Shown piece after piece: positions 36,434 through 46,196 of a stretch of 64,000 nt of DNA. The stretch's first letter is position 1; the number at the start of each line of letters is the position of its first letter. The notes beneath the pieces were generated by a model. That model was not told the DNA's origin and ran no database searches. It saw only the letters and a list, made by a program, of their open reading frames with translations. The stretch comes from an uncultured Clostridia bacterium. GTDB taxonomy: Bacteria > Bacillota > Clostridia > UBA1381. Made by a program: the position numbers and the translations under genes. The stretch covers positions 186,001 through 250,000 of the forward strand of contig CANQIP010000001.1 of assembly GCA_947623955.1 (NCBI GenBank), given 5' to 3'.

Positions 36434-36520
36434 GCCGATGTGGTGGAACTGGCAGACGCGCGGGACTCAAAATCCCGTGAGAGCAATCTCGTGTGGGTTC
36501 GACCCCCACCATCGGCACCA
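36434..36520 (+). tRNA. tRNA-Leu (CAA anticodon); attachment gene of the mini-element
   Basis: Class II tRNA of 87 bases: acceptor GCCGATG/CATCGGC, anticodon loop CTCAAAA (CAA), long variable arm GAGAGCAATCTC, encoded CCA. A variant 3' copy lies at 39900-39957, bounding a 3.4-kb element. Confidence 0.95.
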
Positions 36521-37367: not shown

Positions 37368-37475
37368 TGTGGTATTCCATTGGTTTAACGCTGCGTAAAA
37401 GGCCCGACGTCGGCAAATCCACCACCAGTAATAATTCTACTTCCAAACGCTCCAAAGGGAGCGTTTTTTCTTTGC
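37368..37475 (+). ncRNA. Candidate small RNA with copy 2 of the motif, antisense to the integrase 3' end
   Basis: The transcript would begin at TGTGGTAT (37368) and reach CACCACCAGTA (37420-37430). GTGGT/ACCAC and ATT/AAT pair around the same 2-base bulge as in copy 1. An inner CCGACGTCGG stem follows the conserved GGCCC-like segment. It ends at a terminator, AAACGCTCC/GGGAGCGTTTTTT (37445-37470). No ORF fits. It lies opposite the last codons of the integrase frame. Confidence 0.6.
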
Positions 37476-38359
37476 AAATTTTGCAAATTTATTTTTGAAT
37501 TTTGCAAAATTTCAGCAGCAAATTTGAAATCGTCACGATCAACGGCGTCGTAGATCTGCAGCGTTATGTACACGTCGGCGTGTCCAAGCCACGCGCTCAC
37601 CACGCGCACCGGAACGCCTGCACGAAGGGCGCGGTGCGCGAACGTGTGCCGCAGTTTGTGAAGTCCGCACGGCTCAATCCCCAGCCCCGCCAGAAACCGC
37701 CGCCACGCGTCCAGAACGGAACGATAAACGCACGGTAAGCCCAAACTGTTGGTAAACACACGGTCGCACGTTCGCCGGCGGTAACGGCGGCGTAAAATCG
37801 CCGTAAGGTCGCCGTAGATCGGCAGTGTTCGACATCCGCTGTCAGTTTTCACGGGCTGCAGCTTACCGCGATAGTCGGTATATCGGATATGGATCTCGCC
37901 GCCAACCATGTTAACATCGCGCCACCTTAACGCGATGAGTTCGCCGATGCGCGCGCCCGTCATGAGCAGCGCGACAAACAAATCACCGTAAATCGAATTT
38001 TGCGCACTCTGTACGATTTTCTCGTATTCGGACGCGCTGAACGGCTCGACGGTACTCGCCGATCGGCGAGGTAGTTCCAATTCTTCAAGCATGGAAAGCG
38101 AACTCACAAGACCCAGAGAACGCGCCTTTTTAAGAGCCTGACGCACGAGTGTAAGCATATGCTTTATCGTGGACGTGCTGAGACCCTCAGCCGCCATGTC
38201 GGAGATCATACGCTGCACGTCCATACTTGTAACCTCTCCGACCTCTGTATCACACCTTACACTACGTAAGTAGTACCTGTAAGAGTCGTACGTAGACGGC
38301 TTAACCATTACACGCTTGTAATCATGTAACCACTCGCTCACCCATTCTGACAATGTCAT
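37385..38359 (-). CDS. Tyrosine integrase of the tRNA-Leu mini-element
   Basis: This 324-residue protein has core-binding (LSEWVSEWLHDYKRVMVKPS, STIKHMLTLVRQALKKARS) and catalytic regions: MTGARIGELIALRWRDVN (Arg), HKLRHTFAHRALRAGV, and the Tyr in ITLQIYDAVD. The start is MTLSEW at 38359 with AGAGGTG upstream. Family similarity ends near LQRKNAPFGAF; the last 20 codons read through the antisense RNA terminator and may be a chance extension. The gene is GC-rich. Confidence 0.88.
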   Translation of the reverse strand: MTLSEWVSEWLHDYKRVMVKPSTYDSYRYYLRSVRCDTEVGEVTSMDVQRMISDMAAEGLSTSTIKHMLTLVRQALKKARSLGLVSSLSMLEELELPRRSASTVEPFSASEYEKIVQSAQNSIYGDLFVALLMTGARIGELIALRWRDVNMVGGEIHIRYTDYRGKLQPVKTDSGCRTLPIYGDLTAILRRRYRRRTCDRVFTNSLGLPCVYRSVLDAWRRFLAGLGIEPCGLHKLRHTFAHRALRAGVPVRVVSAWLGHADVYITLQIYDAVDRDDFKFAAEILQNSKINLQNLQRKNAPFGAFGSRIITGGGFADVGPFTQR

Positions 38360-38379
38360 ACAAATCACCTCTACAGCAT

Positions 38380-39250
38380 TATACCACACAGACCCCCGCG
38401 CACGCGCGCGCCCCCGCCTCACGGCGGGTCGGCGGCTATCGCCGCCTGCGTCCGCTATCGCGTCCGCCGCGCGCGTCGGTCCGCGCAAGCGCGCCGCCTT
38501 CGGCGGTGGCGGCTCCGCCGCCTGCGCCCGCTTTGCGTGCGCCGCGCGCTGCGCTGCTGTGTATCGCGCCGATAGCAGCAGACCGCCGTCCAAGGTCGCT
38601 TCGCTCCTGTCGCCGTTAGCATATTCCCCACGTCTCGGGGCTTTTTCGCTTTTGTCGAGTATCAGCGAAGGTAGAAACGCCTACGGCGTTTCTCTGAACT
38701 AATCTTACCCTATGCGAAGGTTAGCTGCCCCGCCTGTCTTGTGTAGCGCGTCCTCGTCTCTCCCGCCCGCTGCCTATCGCGTGTCCGCCCCCTGCGTACG
38801 CGCGCTTAACGGCATTTACGCTTTCCGCCGCCCTGCGCCTGCGCTTGCGGTCGGGTTCTTTGTGCTGCGCCGTTGCTCTCCGTGGCGCGGGGGCGTCTTT
38901 GGGGTGTGCTTTGGGGTCTTGCCGCCGCTGCGGTTCGCTGCCGTCTCCGCAGTCGCTCCCGTCCGCTGTGCGCTTTCGGCGGGCGCGGCGGGCGCGGCGG
39001 GCGGTCGTTCTCCTTCGCGCGCCCCGCCGCCCACCCCACCGTTAGCCCCGAGTACTGTGTTTCCCGCGCTACGGGCTATCCCAAGTCGCTTGGCAAAATT
39101 TTGATGCTGCTCGCTCTTCGCGCCGATGAGCGTCCGCGCGCGCTGGGAACCCCATTCCCCTATATCTTTGTTAGCAGAGCTGCGCCGCAGTTATTTTGCC
39201 TGCGCTTTGTTGGGACACCCTCACCGCCCGTGACGCGCGGGAAACACACT
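38380..39250. other. GC-rich non-coding tract of the mini-element
   Basis: About 870 bases are extremely GC-rich with many short hairpins, for example CCGCCTTCGGCGG near 38495 and AGAAACGCC/GGCGTTTCT at 38672-38692. The translated frames have low-complexity Ala/Pro/Arg composition, so they are judged to be by-products of base composition. The word GTTAGC recurs at about 38614, 38723, 39041 and 39168. It may encode a structured RNA or act as a packaging or replication region. Confidence 0.45.
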
Positions 39251-39899: not shown

Positions 39900-39957
39900 G
39901 GACTCAAAATCCCGTGATGGTAACATCGTGTGGGTTCGACCCCCACCATCGGCACCA
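39900..39957 (+). repeat. tRNA-Leu 3' fragment (right attachment site of the mini-element)
   Basis: Bases 39900-39917 (GGACTCAAAATCCCGTGA) and the last 30 bases up to the CCA match tRNA-Leu at 36434-36520 exactly. The variable arm differs but keeps its stem (GATG/CATC). No 5' half exists, so this is a remnant att site. Confidence 0.85.
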
Positions 39958-40104: not shown

Positions 40105-40872
40105 ATGATTATCACAGTGACTACACAAAAGGGCGGTGTTGGTAAGACCACGACAGCAATCAGCATTGCGGCCGAATTGGCGGCGCGAGGCAAAGGGGTG
40201 CTGCTTGTGGACTTAGACCCGCAGGGCAACGCAACTATCGGGTGCGGACTGACAAACATCAAGGATACCATTGTTAAGCCTATGATGGCAGACATCAATG
40301 GCAACTTTTCATTGAATGATTTGACGGTAATCTTAAGAAAGAATTTTTTCGTTTTGCCGAGTAACATCGAGTTGGCTAACCTTGAACTCATGCTTGTTAG
40401 CGTGATAGGACGTGAGGGTGTGCTGAAACGAATTTTGGAACCTATAAAAAATGATTACGATTTTATCATAATTGACACCTTACCGTCTTTGGGCATACTG
40501 ACAGTCAATGCGTTTGCCGCGTCGGACTACGTAATCGTGCCGATCCTTGCACGGGATTACTACAGTTTACAGGGATTTGACGCGCTAATTGAGTCGGTTA
40601 ACCTTACAAAACGTTGTATAAACCCAAAACTTGAGATACTGGGCGAAGTTATAACAATGTATGATAGCAGGAACAAAAACGACAAGATGATTGCTAATAC
40701 AATCCGCGCTGATGTGCGCACAAATGTATTCGATACCGTCATTCCACAGTCTACACGGGCTGCCGAGGCAAACCGTTTGGGCAAAACTATTCTTGAACAT
40801 GATTGTAAGGGTAAAACCGCCCTTGCATATAAATCCCTAACTGATGAAATTCTTGCAAGAACAGGGGGCTGA
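40105..40872 (+). CDS. parA: ParA-family partition ATPase
   Basis: This 255-residue protein has the deviant Walker A (TQKGGVGKTTTAISIAAELA), VLLVDLDPQGNAT, YDFIIIDTLPSLGILTVNA, and a C-terminus like soluble Soj/ParA proteins. It moves plasmid or ICE DNA with ParB. AGGAGG precedes the ATG. parB follows after an unusual 476-base gap. Confidence 0.92.
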   Translation: MIITVTTQKGGVGKTTTAISIAAELAARGKGVLLVDLDPQGNATIGCGLTNIKDTIVKPMMADINGNFSLNDLTVILRKNFFVLPSNIELANLELMLVSVIGREGVLKRILEPIKNDYDFIIIDTLPSLGILTVNAFAASDYVIVPILARDYYSLQGFDALIESVNLTKRCINPKLEILGEVITMYDSRNKNDKMIANTIRADVRTNVFDTVIPQSTRAAEANRLGKTILEHDCKGKTALAYKSLTDEILARTGG

Positions 40873-41348: not shown

Positions 41349-42413
41349 ATGGCTGAAATAAAACGAGATTATGCTAAAATGATTGATATTTTTTCATCAA
41401 CCGCCGCTGAAACACAAACTACAACGTCATCGAAGGAATATCTTGTTAGCGAATTATCTGTAAGTCTATTACAGGATTTCCCGTCACATCCGTTTGCGTT
41501 CTATACGGGCGAAAAGTTTGACGACCTTGTGGACAGCATAAAAATACACGGAGTTCTTAATCCACTTTTGGTAAGAAAACTCGATAATGGTACATATCAA
41601 ATTTTATCCGGGCATAATCGACGCCGTGCGGCGAAAAATGCGGGGTTTCGGGCTGTTCCGTGTATAGTTTTGGATCATTTGACAGATGATGACGCGCTGA
41701 TGATTGTTTTAGACAGCAATACAAAGCAGCGGGGCATTACAGAAATGAAGATATCCGAGCAAGCACACATTTATGCGTTGGACGTTGAAGTTAATAAGCG
41801 TCAAGGACATCGAAGTGACCTTATAAAAGACATCGAATTAAATCTTCAAATCCTCAGTAATGATGCGGGTTCCGAAACTTCTTCCCAAATTGGGAAGAAG
41901 TTGACAACGCTTGATATCGTTGGTGCAAAGTATGGGATATCGAGGAATACGATTGCGCGACTCTTGCGGATTGATACTCTCATTTTCAAACTTAAAACGA
42001 GAGTGGATGATGAAGAATTTGCTATCAATGCTGGTGTTGAACTGTCTTATCTTTCTGACATAGAACAGCAAATTGTGGATGAGGTATTGACGAAGTTTGA
42101 ATATAAGATTGACATAAAGAAAGCTAGACAACTCCGCGAATTAAGCAGAAAGAAAACGTTAAACGACGTAACGGTTGTCGAGGTGCTTGAGGGTAAATAC
42201 GGCAAGAAGAAAAAAGTTCCGGCGATGAAAGCACTTACATTGACACCCAAATTTCTGGAAAAATTTTATAGTACAGATACACCACGGGTGACAATGATGG
42301 AGGAAATCGAGGCATCTATGGATGTTTGGGCATCGCTGAAGGAAAAATATCCGGAGTTAAGTTTGGATGCGCGGAGGAAGAAATTAAAAGATATGTTAAA
42401 AAATATGGGATAA
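41349..42413 (+). CDS. parB: ParB-family protein of the mobile element
   Basis: This 354-residue protein has the ParB/Srx domain (DFPSHPFAFYTGEKFDDLVDSI, HGVLNPLLVRKLDNGTYQILSGHNRRRAAKNAGF) and an HTH region (TLDIVGAKYGISRNTIARLLRI). A C-terminal extension of about 90 residues replaces the usual dimer domain. It carries a 27-bp palindrome inside its own reading frame (41876-41902). GAGGAGG precedes the ATG. The following genes are packed, suggesting an operon. Confidence 0.88.
   Translation: MAEIKRDYAKMIDIFSSTAAETQTTTSSKEYLVSELSVSLLQDFPSHPFAFYTGEKFDDLVDSIKIHGVLNPLLVRKLDNGTYQILSGHNRRRAAKNAGFRAVPCIVLDHLTDDDALMIVLDSNTKQRGITEMKISEQAHIYALDVEVNKRQGHRSDLIKDIELNLQILSNDAGSETSSQIGKKLTTLDIVGAKYGISRNTIARLLRIDTLIFKLKTRVDDEEFAINAGVELSYLSDIEQQIVDEVLTKFEYKIDIKKARQLRELSRKKTLNDVTVVEVLEGKYGKKKKVPAMKALTLTPKFLEKFYSTDTPRVTMMEEIEASMDVWASLKEKYPELSLDARRKKLKDMLKNMG
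41856..41902. repeat. 47-base repeat with 27-bp palindrome, copy inside parB
   Basis: The segment contains CTTCCCAAATTGGGAAG at the core of a perfect 27-bp palindrome (41876-41902), preceded by ATGCGGGTTCCGA. It encodes ordinary ParB residues (GSETSSQIGKKL). Copy 2 at 42427-42473 matches at 46 of 47 bases. Confidence 0.8.
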
Positions 42414-42426
42414 TAAGCAAAAATCA

Positions 42427-42473
42427 AGTAATAATGCGGGTTCCGAAACTTCTTCCCAAATTGGGAAGAAGTT
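42427..42473. repeat. 47-base repeat with 27-bp palindrome, copy after parB
   Basis: Matches 41856-41902 at 46 of 47 bases; the palindrome is 42447-42473. It is non-coding, 14 bases after the parB stop and 27 before the next ATG. It is a candidate parS/centromere or ParB operator; as a hairpin it lacks a T run, so it is not a typical terminator. Confidence 0.75.
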
Positions 42474-42499
42474 AAAAACCAAGGAAAGAGGAAATAAGA

Positions 42500-42682
42500 A
42501 TGAGAAGAAATTTAACGCGTCAGCAGAAAATATTTGTTTCGTCTAGAGGGTTAAAACCCGAAAATTGGTATCTGGAGCAAGAAACTGTTGACTACTATCA
42601 AATTATCAGCAAAAATGGACAGCGACGGATGTTATCAAAAAACGAAGAAGATCCGAAATTCGGGAAGGAGGAAAACGAATGA
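42500..42682 (+). CDS. Small hypothetical protein (DUF6906-like)
   Basis: This 60-residue basic protein (MRRNLTRQQKIFVSSRGLKP, ENWYLEQETVDYYQIISKNG) resembles small DUF6906-type proteins found in clostridial mobile elements. The next gene starts within its stop region (ATGA-type overlap). Function unknown. Confidence 0.65.
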   Translation: MRRNLTRQQKIFVSSRGLKPENWYLEQETVDYYQIISKNGQRRMLSKNEEDPKFGKEENE

Positions 42683-42927
42683 AAACCCTCGGTATAACAC
42701 GGAAAATAGACAGTATGGGTAGACTTGTAATACCTACGGAGATACGGAAAATGTTAGGACTAAATAATCACGATCCGGTAGAATTATTTATGGACGGGGA
42801 TACCGTTATCGTAAAAAAATATTTGCCTCATTGTATTTTTTGTGGTGAGGCAAAGGAAATAACAGAATACAAAGGCAAGCGCATTTGCCAAAGATGTTTA
42901 AAGGAGCTTAATTATGAGAGTAATTAG
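42679..42927 (+). CDS. AbrB/SpoVT-like regulator with zinc ribbon
   Basis: This 82-residue protein has an N-terminal swapped-hairpin AbrB domain (GITRKIDSMGRLVIPTEIRKML, VELFMDGDTVIVKK) and a C-terminal CxxC...CxxC ribbon (CIFCGEAKE, ICQRCLKEL), the form common in Clostridia as a transition-state-type regulator. It overlaps both neighbours, so it is translated in one operon with the RuvC-like protein. Confidence 0.85.
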   Translation: MKTLGITRKIDSMGRLVIPTEIRKMLGLNNHDPVELFMDGDTVIVKKYLPHCIFCGEAKEITEYKGKRICQRCLKELNYESN

Positions 42928-43579
42928 TATTGATGTGGGGCTTAATAATTTTGTTGTAGTAACTAACAATATCGGCAAGGAACCCATATTGATACGTGGA
43001 AAGCAGATAAAAAGTCAGAATCAATGGTATAATAAGCGGATTATGCCTATTAAGGCACAGCTTGATATATCATCATGTGATGAGAAAGAAAAACAAAGGT
43101 TAAACCGTAAAATTAGTAGTTTGGCGGAGGCAACCATATCTAAAATCTTTGTCTTTTTTGAGAATGTGAGTGACTGGATAATAGCGTATTGCAGAGATAA
43201 CCGCATTGATGAAGTGCTTATTGGCGCGTATGAAATTAAGGAAAAAGAAAACTTTATCAGTATTCCCTTTCAACATTTTTATTCGCTCGTAGAAACAAAA
43301 TGTAAATATCACAATATCAAATATACGCTGGTTGATGAGAAATACACGTCGGGGACATCATTTTTTGATGACGAACCGCCGACCCGAATTTACTACAACA
43401 AAAAACGCCGTGTATATAAGCACCTATGGAGGTGCAATAACGGTGATTATATTAATGCTGATGTAAATGACAGTTATCAAATCATGCGGAAGGCACACCC
43501 TGAATTTTTTAAAAATGGTATCACGGGGTATTTGTCATCACCTCGTGTTGTTGATATTAACAAAAAAAAGGAGATGTGA
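42914..43579 (+). CDS. Stand-alone TnpB-like RuvC-domain protein
   Basis: This 221-residue protein matches the C-terminal nuclease half of IS605-type TnpB/OrfB. RuvC-I is at the very start (ISIDVGLNNFVVVTNNIGKE), followed by ILIRGKQIKSQNQWYNKRI, a helical arm, a RuvC-II-like strand (DEVLIGAYEIKEKENF), TLVDEKYTSGTSFFDDEPP, and RuvC-III (DYINADVNDSYQIMRKAHPE). The N-terminal wedge/REC part of TnpB and the zinc-finger cysteines are missing. It lies in the parA-parB-abrB operon with no transposase (TnpA) or IS ends. It may be a domesticated or inactive nuclease. Confidence 0.75.
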   Translation: MRVISIDVGLNNFVVVTNNIGKEPILIRGKQIKSQNQWYNKRIMPIKAQLDISSCDEKEKQRLNRKISSLAEATISKIFVFFENVSDWIIAYCRDNRIDEVLIGAYEIKEKENFISIPFQHFYSLVETKCKYHNIKYTLVDEKYTSGTSFFDDEPPTRIYYNKKRRVYKHLWRCNNGDYINADVNDSYQIMRKAHPEFFKNGITGYLSSPRVVDINKKKEM

Positions 43580-43583
43580 AAAT

Positions 43584-43955
43584 ATGATGGATTTTACGTC
43601 TATTAGTGAAGAACTGGCTGAAAAATATATTGTTCTCAAAGAGATTGAACAGCTTATGCACACCAATAAAAATTTTGCTGACGAATTGGTAATGGGTAGA
43701 TCGGCATTGACTGAGGCTAAAAAAATACAGCAAGAGTTTTTTCCGATGAGCAATAAAAGTGAAATGATAATTATGACGCTGCTCAATCAAAACTTCGTCT
43801 ACGACGAAGTGGATTACAGTAATGAGTTGGAAGATAAAAGTATTACGAATGGTTGTAGCATGGGGCTGTTGCTTTATGTTGCAGATGCAGTTGCAGATGA
43901 GATAAATATTATAAACCGAAAAATAAGTGACTTACAGACCACGGCAGTCTTTTAG
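43584..43955 (+). CDS. Hypothetical protein of the partition operon
   Basis: This 123-residue, mainly helical protein (MDFTSISEELAEKYIVLKEI, MGRSALTEAKKIQQEFFPMS, YVADAVADEINIINRKISDL) has no recognised family. AAAGGAG lies 8 bases before the ATG at 43584, 4 bases after the RuvC-like stop, so it is likely co-translated with it. Confidence 0.65.
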   Translation: MMDFTSISEELAEKYIVLKEIEQLMHTNKNFADELVMGRSALTEAKKIQQEFFPMSNKSEMIIMTLLNQNFVYDEVDYSNELEDKSITNGCSMGLLLYVADAVADEINIINRKISDLQTTAVF

Positions 43956-44027: not shown

Positions 44028-46196
44028 ATGAAAATGTCGGCAGAGGACTACAAAAACTTTGTCGTAAGCGGATTAAAAAAAATATTGCAAGACGGCGAGG
44101 ACTGGATAAGATGGTTGGATTTTGCGTCTAATACGTATAAGTATAGCTATGATAACAGTATAGCTATGTATCTTCAAAATCCCAATATCAGAATGGCGGC
44201 TGATTTTACCACATGGAACAGACTTAATCGTCGAATACTAAAGGGACAGGAAGGTTGTATCATTTTTAAGGATAATAAAAAACAGTATGTATTTGATATA
44301 AGTCAGACCAAAGGTGGTACGGTCAATAGGTGGGAACTTGAAGTAAAGGATGATCTGGTCAAATTCACAAATAAAAAATATGGTATCAATAATCCTAGTT
44401 TTGACGATTATCTTAGGTCTATGATTGCCTTTGCAATAAAAGATAAGTCCAATTTAGATTTGTTATTTTACAGTGTAAAGCACATGGTATCCAAACGTAT
44501 AGGTTGGAGTATTACTAGCTTTATACCAAATATGTATAACCAATTATCACTTGAGACAAAAATGCAGTTGTCGGTGGATACATACGAAACGGCACAAAAA
44601 ATATTAAGGAAAATTGAAGTTGAAAATAAAGAATTACAGGAGGAACGGTTTAACTATGAATACGAAAATAATAGAACGAATGAGCAGTCGGCGGCAATTC
44701 GACGTGAAACAGGAGTTGCCAGAGAAAGCCTACCTTTCGCCGGAACAGATATTGCGTCGTATCAACAGATCGAGATACGCGATAGCGGCGATGGGGTTCA
44801 TGGAAACGCAGCAGCCGGAACTGTACCAGAAACTGCTGGTTTCGGGAGAACTTTTGTCGACGCTGATAGAGGTTCAGCTGACAGCACGGGCGGCGCGGGA
44901 GGACGCGATAAATCAGATAATATCCAAAGTGACGATAAACAAGGCGGGATGGGAGAAACAGCAAGAAATCGCGACGCTAAGCGATATGGTAGAACAACAA
45001 ATAATGCGGGAAATAGTACTGATACAAAGATAACAATTACCTGTGAATGGAGCGAAAGCCCCGTATTTGAGGATGGAAAAACATATTCTGTGGCGGAATT
45101 TGACACGCTGATGAAAGAGGCAGACACTAAACGCGTAGCCGGACGAAATGCAGCCATAGCTAAATATGGCTCGGAAAGTAAATGGTACGAGAATGGATTG
45201 TATGATGAAGAATTTTCCGAATTTATTGGCTATGATAAAGTAAAATTCACCGTCAATATGCCGTCCGGTGAGAAAATAACCGAACGTCAGGATATTGGTG
45301 ACGGCGACGGTGGCGTTATAGATTATTTCAGGCAGTTTGAATATAAGCATTATGTGGCAGAGGCATTGGAAGTCGCAGCGGCAAAAGAACGCGGTATTAT
45401 ACAAGGTCAATCAAAGGACTTGCAGATAAGCCTGTTCCCTAACGAGGATGAACAAATTGCAATCATAGACGGAGCGGAGAGCAATAACGAATTGCAGAGA
45501 GCGCAGGCATTCGGCGGATTTTACGGCGAGTATAATGCCGTAAAGGAAACGCATCCTGATGATATTGTCATGTTCCAGGTCGGTGACTTCTTCGAGATGT
45601 TCGGAGAGGACGCGAAAACCGCTGCCGAGATGTTGGAAATACGGGTAACGGACAGGACAATACCGAATGTCGGCAAGGTGGCGATGTGCGGTGTTCCCGC
45701 GTTTTCACTTGAAAAGTATGTAGAGATACTGCAAGACAAGTACGATATAACCATCTCCGCAATAGACGCAAATACAAATGAGCGCGGTGTTTACACGCTC
45801 CTTTCCGTTGACCATGCAGCGGATCGCGCCATTGACGAGGGCAAAGCCGAATACGGCGCGGTCGGCAGGAGGGATTTTACGGACACGGAATATAATAAGA
45901 CGGCATCCACTCCGATACAGCATAACATAAAAAATGACGAACTGTCTAATTTTGTTATATCTGATATGGGTGAGGAACATATTACCAAAAGCGTTAAATT
46001 TAAATACAATGTAGATGCAATACAAACACTGAAAAAAATCGAATCTGAACAGCGGCTTGCCACGCGGGAAGAACAGAAAATTTTATCGCGCTATGTTGGG
46101 TGGGGAGGTCTGCCAGAAATCTTCGAAGAAAAACACTCCCATTACGCACAGTTAAAGAGCATCCTTACAGACGCGGAATACTTGCGCTATAGATGA
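44028..46196 (+). pseudogene. 5' part of a giant mobile-element helicase/methylase-type protein
   Basis: 722 codons remain of a protein normally several times longer. Order: an N-terminal ICE-type domain (LDFASNTYKYSYDNSIAMYL, ADFTTWNRLNRRILKGQEGC), a Gly/Asp-rich linker (about 225-345), an insert (EWSESPVFEDGKTYSVAEFD), a MutS-I-like module (about 505-585: DDIVMFQVGDFFEMFGEDAK, VAMCGVPAFSLEKYVEIL), and the start of the helicase region (REEQKILSRYVGWGGLPEIF). Helicase motifs and methylase are missing: the frame breaks at 46190 into unrelated sequence. Confidence 0.75.
44656..45033 (+). CDS. TnpV-like protein nested out of frame in the giant gene
   Basis: This 125-residue frame (ERMSSRRQFDVKQELPEKAY, RYAIAAMGFMETQQPELYQK, LLVSGELLSTLIEVQLTARA, NKAGWEKQQEIATLSDMVEQ) resembles TnpV-type helical proteins from clostridial transposons. 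It lies wholly inside the giant gene in another frame, exactly over its low-complexity linker. GGAGG lies 12 bases before the ATG at 44656. Both frames may be used. Confidence 0.5.
   Translation: MNTKIIERMSSRRQFDVKQELPEKAYLSPEQILRRINRSRYAIAAMGFMETQQPELYQKLLVSGELLSTLIEVQLTARAAREDAINQIISKVTINKAGWEKQQEIATLSDMVEQQIMREIVLIQR

What the first reader, a model, noticed from the sequence alone, without database searches (positions are those of the whole stretch)
42500..43955. TnpB-derived RuvC protein in a partition operon
A 221-residue protein keeps the three RuvC-type segments of TnpB but lacks its N-terminal RNA/TAM-binding half, zinc knuckle, TnpA partner and IS ends. It overlaps an AbrB-type regulator and lies behind parA-parB. 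This suggests domestication of a TnpB nuclease fold for plasmid/ICE maintenance, element competition or regulation, possibly with the neighbouring unknown proteins.
Basis: partly seen in the sequence, partly recalled or inferred. Interest (0 to 1): 0.75.

Follow-up and report, generated by a model that had tools for sequence, protein, structure and literature searches.

The report
Guide-less TnpB nuclease domain in mobilizable elements
A bacterial gene-transfer element carries, beside its DNA-partition genes, a protein made only of the cutting half of the RNA-guided nuclease TnpB; four related elements have kept it under strong selection with its active site intact, so it probably cuts DNA without a guide RNA.

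Summary
A 221-aa protein (42914-43579) is the RuvC/TNB half of TnpB and nothing else. It overlaps an AbrB-zinc-ribbon gene and sits behind parA-parB. It is not a decayed copy: three other species of the genus carry orthologues (57-65% identity, 215-225 aa) in the same order parB-abrB-ruvC-acidic ORF-SNF2/methylase, inside integrative mobilizable elements (serine integrase, primase, MobC, relaxase). Synonymous sites are saturated while the frames stay open. The four form one clade (100/100) beside full-length TnpBs; the other relatives examined are full-length or fragments. D7, E142 and D183 are invariant; E142 is the known alternative RuvC-II glutamate. A model (pLDDT 89) overlays TnpB/Cas12f RuvC (Z 14-17). 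One clue was misread: this whole TnpB subclade lacks the zinc knuckle. No guide RNA, TnpA or IS end was found. Best reading: a guide-independent RuvC nuclease in the element's replication/partition module; a nuclease toxin paired with AbrB is the main rival. Activity is untested. It mirrors TldR, which kept RNA-guided binding and lost catalysis. The window copy lies in a truncated element. I found no report of such a form, but only an open-access library was searched.

The parts
40105..40872 (+). parA (255 aa ParA ATPase)
   Evidence: Pfam AAA_31 1.7e-55, CbiA; 64-77% identical in G009 and G013 elements
41349..42413 (+). parB (354 aa)
   Evidence: ParB_N 1.2e-17; TIGR00180 above its cut-off; orthologues 59-64% identical
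41876..41902 (.). parS-like 27-nt palindrome inside parB
   Evidence: 0 expected by chance; conserved with paired changes in both arms in relatives
42427..42479 (.). second, 94% identical copy of the 53-nt stretch with the same palindrome, upstream of the DUF6906-abrB-ruvC genes
42500..42682 (+). DUF6906 small protein (60 aa), seen in this copy only among the four elements compared
   Evidence: PF21847 2.7e-12; no match in L113-L115
42679..42927 (+). abrB: 82 aa, AbrB/SpoVT-type DNA-binding domain plus zinc ribbon; overlaps ruvC by 14 nt
   Evidence: PF04014 1.1e-8, TIGR01439 above cut-off; overlap of 10-20 nt in all four elements
42914..43579 (+). RuvC-only TnpB derivative, 221 aa; triad D7, E142, D183
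43584..43955 (+). acidic (pI 4.2-4.6), probably helical 123-aa protein of unknown fold, co-conserved with ruvC
   Evidence: (model too poor to use)
44028..46196 (+). 5' part of the element's 2350-2400-aa LPD25/MutS-I/methylase/SNF2 helicase gene, truncated here
   Evidence: C-terminal part not found in the genome held

Best explanation
SHOWN: a full-length, zinc-less TnpB with the alternative RuvC-II glutamate lost its N-terminal WED/REC half. The remaining RuvC-TNB domain became a fixed gene of one family of integrative mobilizable elements, between parB-abrB and the helicase-methylase gene, and has been held by purifying selection with all three putative metal-binding residues. INFERRED: it works as a stand-alone, metal-dependent DNA nuclease without guide RNA, like RuvC-fold resolvases, translated in step with the AbrB-zinc-ribbon regulator. 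It cuts a DNA structure or site of the excised element (replication, recombination or dimer intermediates), with AbrB, ParB or the acidic downstream protein giving targeting or restraint.
For: Same gene order in G000, G013, G014 and G009. RuvC codon-position differences 27-31/17-25/51-56% with pS saturated, as for ParB. Four short forms = one clade, 100/100, on a long stem. D7, E142, D183 present in all 4 and in 79-80 of 80 viral relatives. 32 of 47 conserved TnpB columns kept, all triad positions among them, while N106, R74, R169-G170 and the WKQ..NQ loop are lost or replaced by clade-specific residues. Model pLDDT 88.9, Z 13.9-17.1 to TnpB/Cas12f over residues 1-199. No Rfam guide RNA and no excess codon conservation at the 3' end. 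In phages the AbrB-zinc-ribbon relatives often sit upstream of recombination/replication genes (RecT, SSB, SbcC-like ATPase, PD-DEXK), which fits a DNA-processing module. RuvC is basic (pI 8.9-9.2), the next protein acidic (pI 4.2-4.6).
Against: No activity data. Only four elements, one genus. TnpB/Cas12 RuvC sites are normally gated by guide-target pairing, so an isolated domain may be inactive. The substrate and partner are guesses. G186, next to D183, became Asp in all four short forms, which could alter the site.
Confidence: 0.45

Rival explanations
1. Toxin-antitoxin-like addiction: AbrB (MazE-fold) is the antitoxin and regulator, the overlapping RuvC protein a nuclease toxin; beside parAB it would stabilise the element by killing segregants.
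For: Small MazE/AbrB-fold gene overlapping the downstream nuclease gene by 10-20 nt in all four elements; AbrB matches PHROG families labelled antitoxin; placed next to parAB.
Against: AbrB-zinc-ribbon relatives are common without any RuvC partner: 0 of 80 viral loci, and their downstream ORFs are diverse (55 clusters of 77, only 15 of 77 within 20 nt). A third co-conserved gene follows. No PADLOC toxin match.
Confidence: 0.2
2. Accessory to RNA-guided TnpB: it works with, or as a decoy against, full-length TnpBs or their guide RNAs of competing elements.
For: Same fold as TnpB; full-length relatives exist in G014.
Against: No full-length TnpB was found in three of the four carrier genomes, the window's own included (the own genome is 87.6% complete); residues conserved across full-length TnpBs outside the triad are lost.
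Confidence: 0.1
3. Non-catalytic structural or DNA-binding role: the RuvC fold serves as a scaffold for AbrB, ParB or the acidic protein.
For: Isolated Cas12-type RuvC domains may need allosteric activation (general knowledge); clade-specific fixed changes near the site, G186D and N106Y.
Against: All three triad residues are invariant in the four diverged proteins, unexpected if catalysis were lost.
Confidence: 0.2
4. Recent fragment or pseudogene of an IS605/IS607 tnpB.
For: Truncated relative to TnpB; the window element itself is truncated.
Against: Intact frames in four elements at 57-65% protein identity with saturated synonymous sites; conserved synteny and start site; 100/100 clade.
Confidence: 0.03

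Closest known systems
TnpB (IS200/IS605 and IS607 RNA-guided endonuclease), zinc-less alternative-glutamate subclade
   Same: RuvC I-III and TNB region, D-E(alt)-D triad, same fold
   Different: No WED/REC half, no TnpA, IS ends or detectable guide RNA; a 9-14-aa loop and several near-universal residues lost; an element gene under its own selection
TldR (TnpB-like nuclease-dead repressors; PMC13418256)
   Same: TnpB exapted by a mobile element and tied to new neighbours
   Different: TldR keeps RNA-guided DNA binding and loses RuvC catalysis; this protein does the reverse
Fanzor and Fanzor-like IS607 TnpB (PMC10711439)
   Same: RuvC-II glutamate in the alternative position
   Different: Those are full-length and RNA-guided, with a zinc finger
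RuvC Holliday-junction resolvase
   Same: Stand-alone RuvC-fold protein; D. radiodurans RuvC is the best non-Cas12/TnpB match (Foldseek about 6e-4)
   Different: Descends from TnpB and carries a TNB segment; junction cleavage untested
MazE/AbrB-type toxin-antitoxin operons
   Same: AbrB-fold gene overlapping a downstream gene
   Different: Toxin is not MazF/PIN-like; AbrB has a zinc ribbon and usually occurs without this partner

Membership tests
TnpB RNA-guided endonuclease | RuvC-like nuclease domain with D-E-D triad | tested here: met
   glutamate in the alternative position (E142), as described in PMC10711439
TnpB RNA-guided endonuclease | N-terminal WED/REC half that recognises TAM and RNA | tested here: not met
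   NCBIfam match covers 196-389 of 389 only; ORF starts at RuvC-I in all four
TnpB RNA-guided endonuclease | Guide (omega/re) RNA at the 3' end | tested here: inconclusive
   No Rfam match, no excess 3'-end codon conservation; in the window the next ORF follows within 5 nt; RNA not assayed
TnpB RNA-guided endonuclease | Residence in an IS with TnpA or IS ends | tested here: not met
   No TnpA seen beside the gene in the four loci; many TnpBs stand alone, so this feature is weak
TldR | Loss of RuvC catalytic residues with retained guide-RNA and DNA binding | tested here: not met
   Triad intact, N-terminal half absent
RuvC Holliday-junction resolvase | Member of the RuvC/RuvX family by sequence | tested here: not met
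   Best families are OrfB_IS605 and TNB; RuvX only 0.017, below cut-off
RuvC Holliday-junction resolvase | Cleaves branched DNA as a dimer | not testable with these tools
   needs biochemistry
Type II toxin-antitoxin | Antitoxin gene overlapping or adjacent to the toxin gene | tested here: met
   10-20 nt overlap in four elements
Type II toxin-antitoxin | Toxicity of one gene neutralised by the other | not testable with these tools
   needs expression assay
Integrative mobilizable element | Integrase, mobilisation genes, no own conjugation machinery | tested here: inconclusive
   G009 element: serine integrase, Rep-like HTH, parAB, helicase, primase, MobC, relaxase; ends and absence of a T4SS not mapped; the window copy lacks relaxase and helicase C-terminus

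The most novel reading that the evidence does not exclude
The first TnpB lineage known to have shed RNA guidance altogether while keeping its nuclease site, re-used as a protein-targeted nuclease (via AbrB, ParB/parS or the acidic partner) in a mobile element's partition/replication module: the mirror image of TldR.
Probability: 0.4. Interest if true: 0.75.

Novelty: new variant of a known kind. Interest (0 to 1): 0.55.

Why it matters
The best-known TnpB descendants (Cas12, Fanzor, TldR) keep the RNA-binding half; what varies is targeting or cleavage. A conserved RuvC-only descendant would show that the nuclease half can be re-used alone, and offers a small natural test of whether the TnpB RuvC domain can cut without an RNA-DNA hybrid. 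It also gives mobilizable elements a new candidate maintenance function.

Tried and rejected
Pseudogene/fragment: rejected. Zinc-knuckle loss as a domestication mark: rejected, the subclade lacks it. N-terminal half in a neighbouring gene: no family match to WED/REC in neighbours. An NF040570 hit reaching back to profile position 112 in G014 crosses ten stops over abrB and was judged spurious. Short forms elsewhere: the 80 best viral relatives are TnpB-length or cut by a contig end; one apparent 259-aa case (L181) is full-length with an odd start. Plasmid and phage records: hits under 60% identity, annotated as TnpB or transposase or unannotated; the few opened were full-length. Class and phylum samples: no match near the score of the four (best others 160-187 bits against 409-432) and no short orthologue; a few short frames there score like ordinary TnpB and look like fragments. 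Acidic ORF: no family and an unusable single-sequence model; no relatives in viral contigs. The single genome-contig scan with the bare protein gave one full-length archaeal TnpB. Literature: no paper joining TnpB with AbrB or a RuvC-only form was found, but only open-access papers are held and Altae-Tran 2023 could not be read.

Full report
What is there. The window lies at G000:C1:186001-250000 of a 2.13 Mb, 56-contig genome. In 40.1-46.2 kb lie parA, parB, a DUF6906 gene, abrB, the 221-aa ORF, an acidic 123-aa ORF and the start of a long LPD25/MutS-I gene. The 221-aa protein matches OrfB_IS605 and Cas12f1-like_TNB above Pfam's cut-offs and only the second half (196-389) of the TnpB family model.

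Not a fragment. Within the genus, G013, G014 and G009 carry orthologues of 215-225 aa at 57-65% identity. All are flanked by the same genes: parB (where the contig reaches it), an AbrB-zinc-ribbon gene overlapping by 10-20 nt, the acidic ORF and a giant LPD25/methylase/SNF2 gene. Synonymous sites are saturated, while first and second codon positions differ by only 27-31% and 17-25%, like ParB. Seven elements with more distant ParBs lack abrB, ruvC and the acidic ORF together, so these three behave as a unit. In a sample of 391 genomes of the class, the acidic ORF was found only in elements that also have ruvC.

The element. The G009 copy lies with a serine integrase, a replication-type HTH protein, parAB, the helicase-methylase, a primase-like protein, MobC and a relaxase: an integrative mobilizable element by gene content, although its ends were not mapped. 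The window copy stops within the helicase gene at 46196, and neither the rest of that gene nor the relaxase was found in this genome, so it is a truncated remnant whose ruvC is still intact.

Relatives and origin. The nearest other relatives are TnpBs. The 80 best viral relatives are TnpB-length (345-540 aa) or cut by a contig end; an apparent 259-aa case has an open upstream frame with TnpB N-terminal sequence. Matches elsewhere in the order, class and phylum reach at most 187 bits, against 409-432 for the four, and mostly lie in frames of about 300-530 aa. In a tree the four short forms are one clade (100/100) on a long stem, next to full-length TnpBs from the same genus and a gut phage. This points to one loss of the N-terminal half followed by a shift in constraint.

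Active site. D7 and D183 are the RuvC-I and RuvC-III aspartates. The canonical RuvC-II glutamate position is not conserved. E142, at the start of ExYTS, is invariant in all short forms and in 80 of 80 viral relatives. This is the 'alternative E' place described for Fanzors and a group of IS607 TnpBs (PMC10711439). The subclade as a whole lacks the zinc knuckle, so its absence is not evidence of domestication. The short clade kept 32 of 47 highly conserved TnpB columns, including every triad position. It changed N106, K73-R74, H83, R169-G170 (to K-H in all four) and G186 (to D in all four), and lost a 9-14-aa loop. Retained catalysis with lost RNP-type residues is my inference from this pattern; which of the lost residues touch RNA was not tested.

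Structure. The AlphaFold2 model (56 rows, pLDDT 88.9, pTM 0.85) aligns over residues 1-199 to Cas12f (Z 17.1, 2.8 A, 186 residues) and ISDra2 TnpB (8h1j, Z 13.9, 3.3 A, 173 residues; chain 185-378); the best match outside Cas12/TnpB/Fanzor is Deinococcus RuvC. E142 directly follows strand 136-141 and D183 lies at the start of helix 182-194.

Guide RNA. No Rfam guide-RNA family, no rise in same-codon conservation towards the 3' end (0.43-0.53 over the last 80 codons), and in the window the next ORF starts 5 nt after the stop. A guide RNA is therefore unlikely but not excluded.

Function. AbrB-zinc-ribbon relatives are common in phages; none of 80 such loci has a RuvC partner. Their downstream genes are diverse and often belong to recombination and replication modules: RecT, SSB, SbcC-like ATPase, PD-(D/E)XK nuclease, Enc34-type ssDNA-binding protein. 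This leans towards a DNA-processing role over a dedicated toxin-antitoxin pair, though the overlap and MazE fold keep that rival alive. The nuclease is basic and its downstream neighbour strongly acidic in all four, which would suit a binding partner or inhibitor. I commit to a guide-independent RuvC-fold nuclease of the replication/partition module at 0.45.

Novelty. TldR kept RNA-guided binding and lost cleavage (PMC13418256); this lineage did the opposite. I found no description of such a form in the library searched, with the limits noted. It is a new variant of a known kind, so far known from four elements of one genus.

Noticed in passing
41856-41908 and 42427-42479: A perfect 27-nt palindrome (AACTTCTTCCCAAATTGGGAAGAAGTT) lies inside parB and again just after it, within a 53-nt repeat. 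In relatives the parB copy changes on both arms together (G009 L114:14532, G014 L132:2243), as expected for a ParB-binding (parS-like) site.
   Followed up: partly
44614-45033: A TnpV-family ORF (PF14198, 9.5e-7) lies in another frame inside the low-complexity middle of the LPD25/helicase gene, and is conserved (40-49%) in L113, L114 and L115: a conserved overlapping gene.
   Followed up: partly
36463-36520 and 39900-39957: 58-nt direct repeat (91%) of the 3' end of tRNA-Leu (36434-36520), with a tyrosine integrase (37385-38593) between: att-like ends of a small integrated element just upstream of parA.
   Followed up: no
46196: The long helicase-methylase gene is cut short here; the rest of it and the relaxase were not found in the genome held.
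   Followed up: partly
L113:13417-14148: The G013 element has a DNA/RNA non-specific endonuclease gene (PF13930, 2.2e-22) inserted between parB and abrB.
   Followed up: no
L018-L097: AbrB-zinc-ribbon genes often lie upstream of phage recombination/replication gene sets (RecT, SSB, SbcC-like, AAA_24, PD-DEXK).
   Followed up: partly
L010 (G014:C5:21023-21670): A full-length zinc-less TnpB (401-aa open frame) lies beside a ClpP-like protease gene, in what looks like a prophage, with no TnpA seen.
   Followed up: no
L002 (G000:C10:33661-33767): A 77% identical stretch of the DUF6906 gene lies elsewhere in the same genome, about 12 kb from another parB.
   Followed up: no
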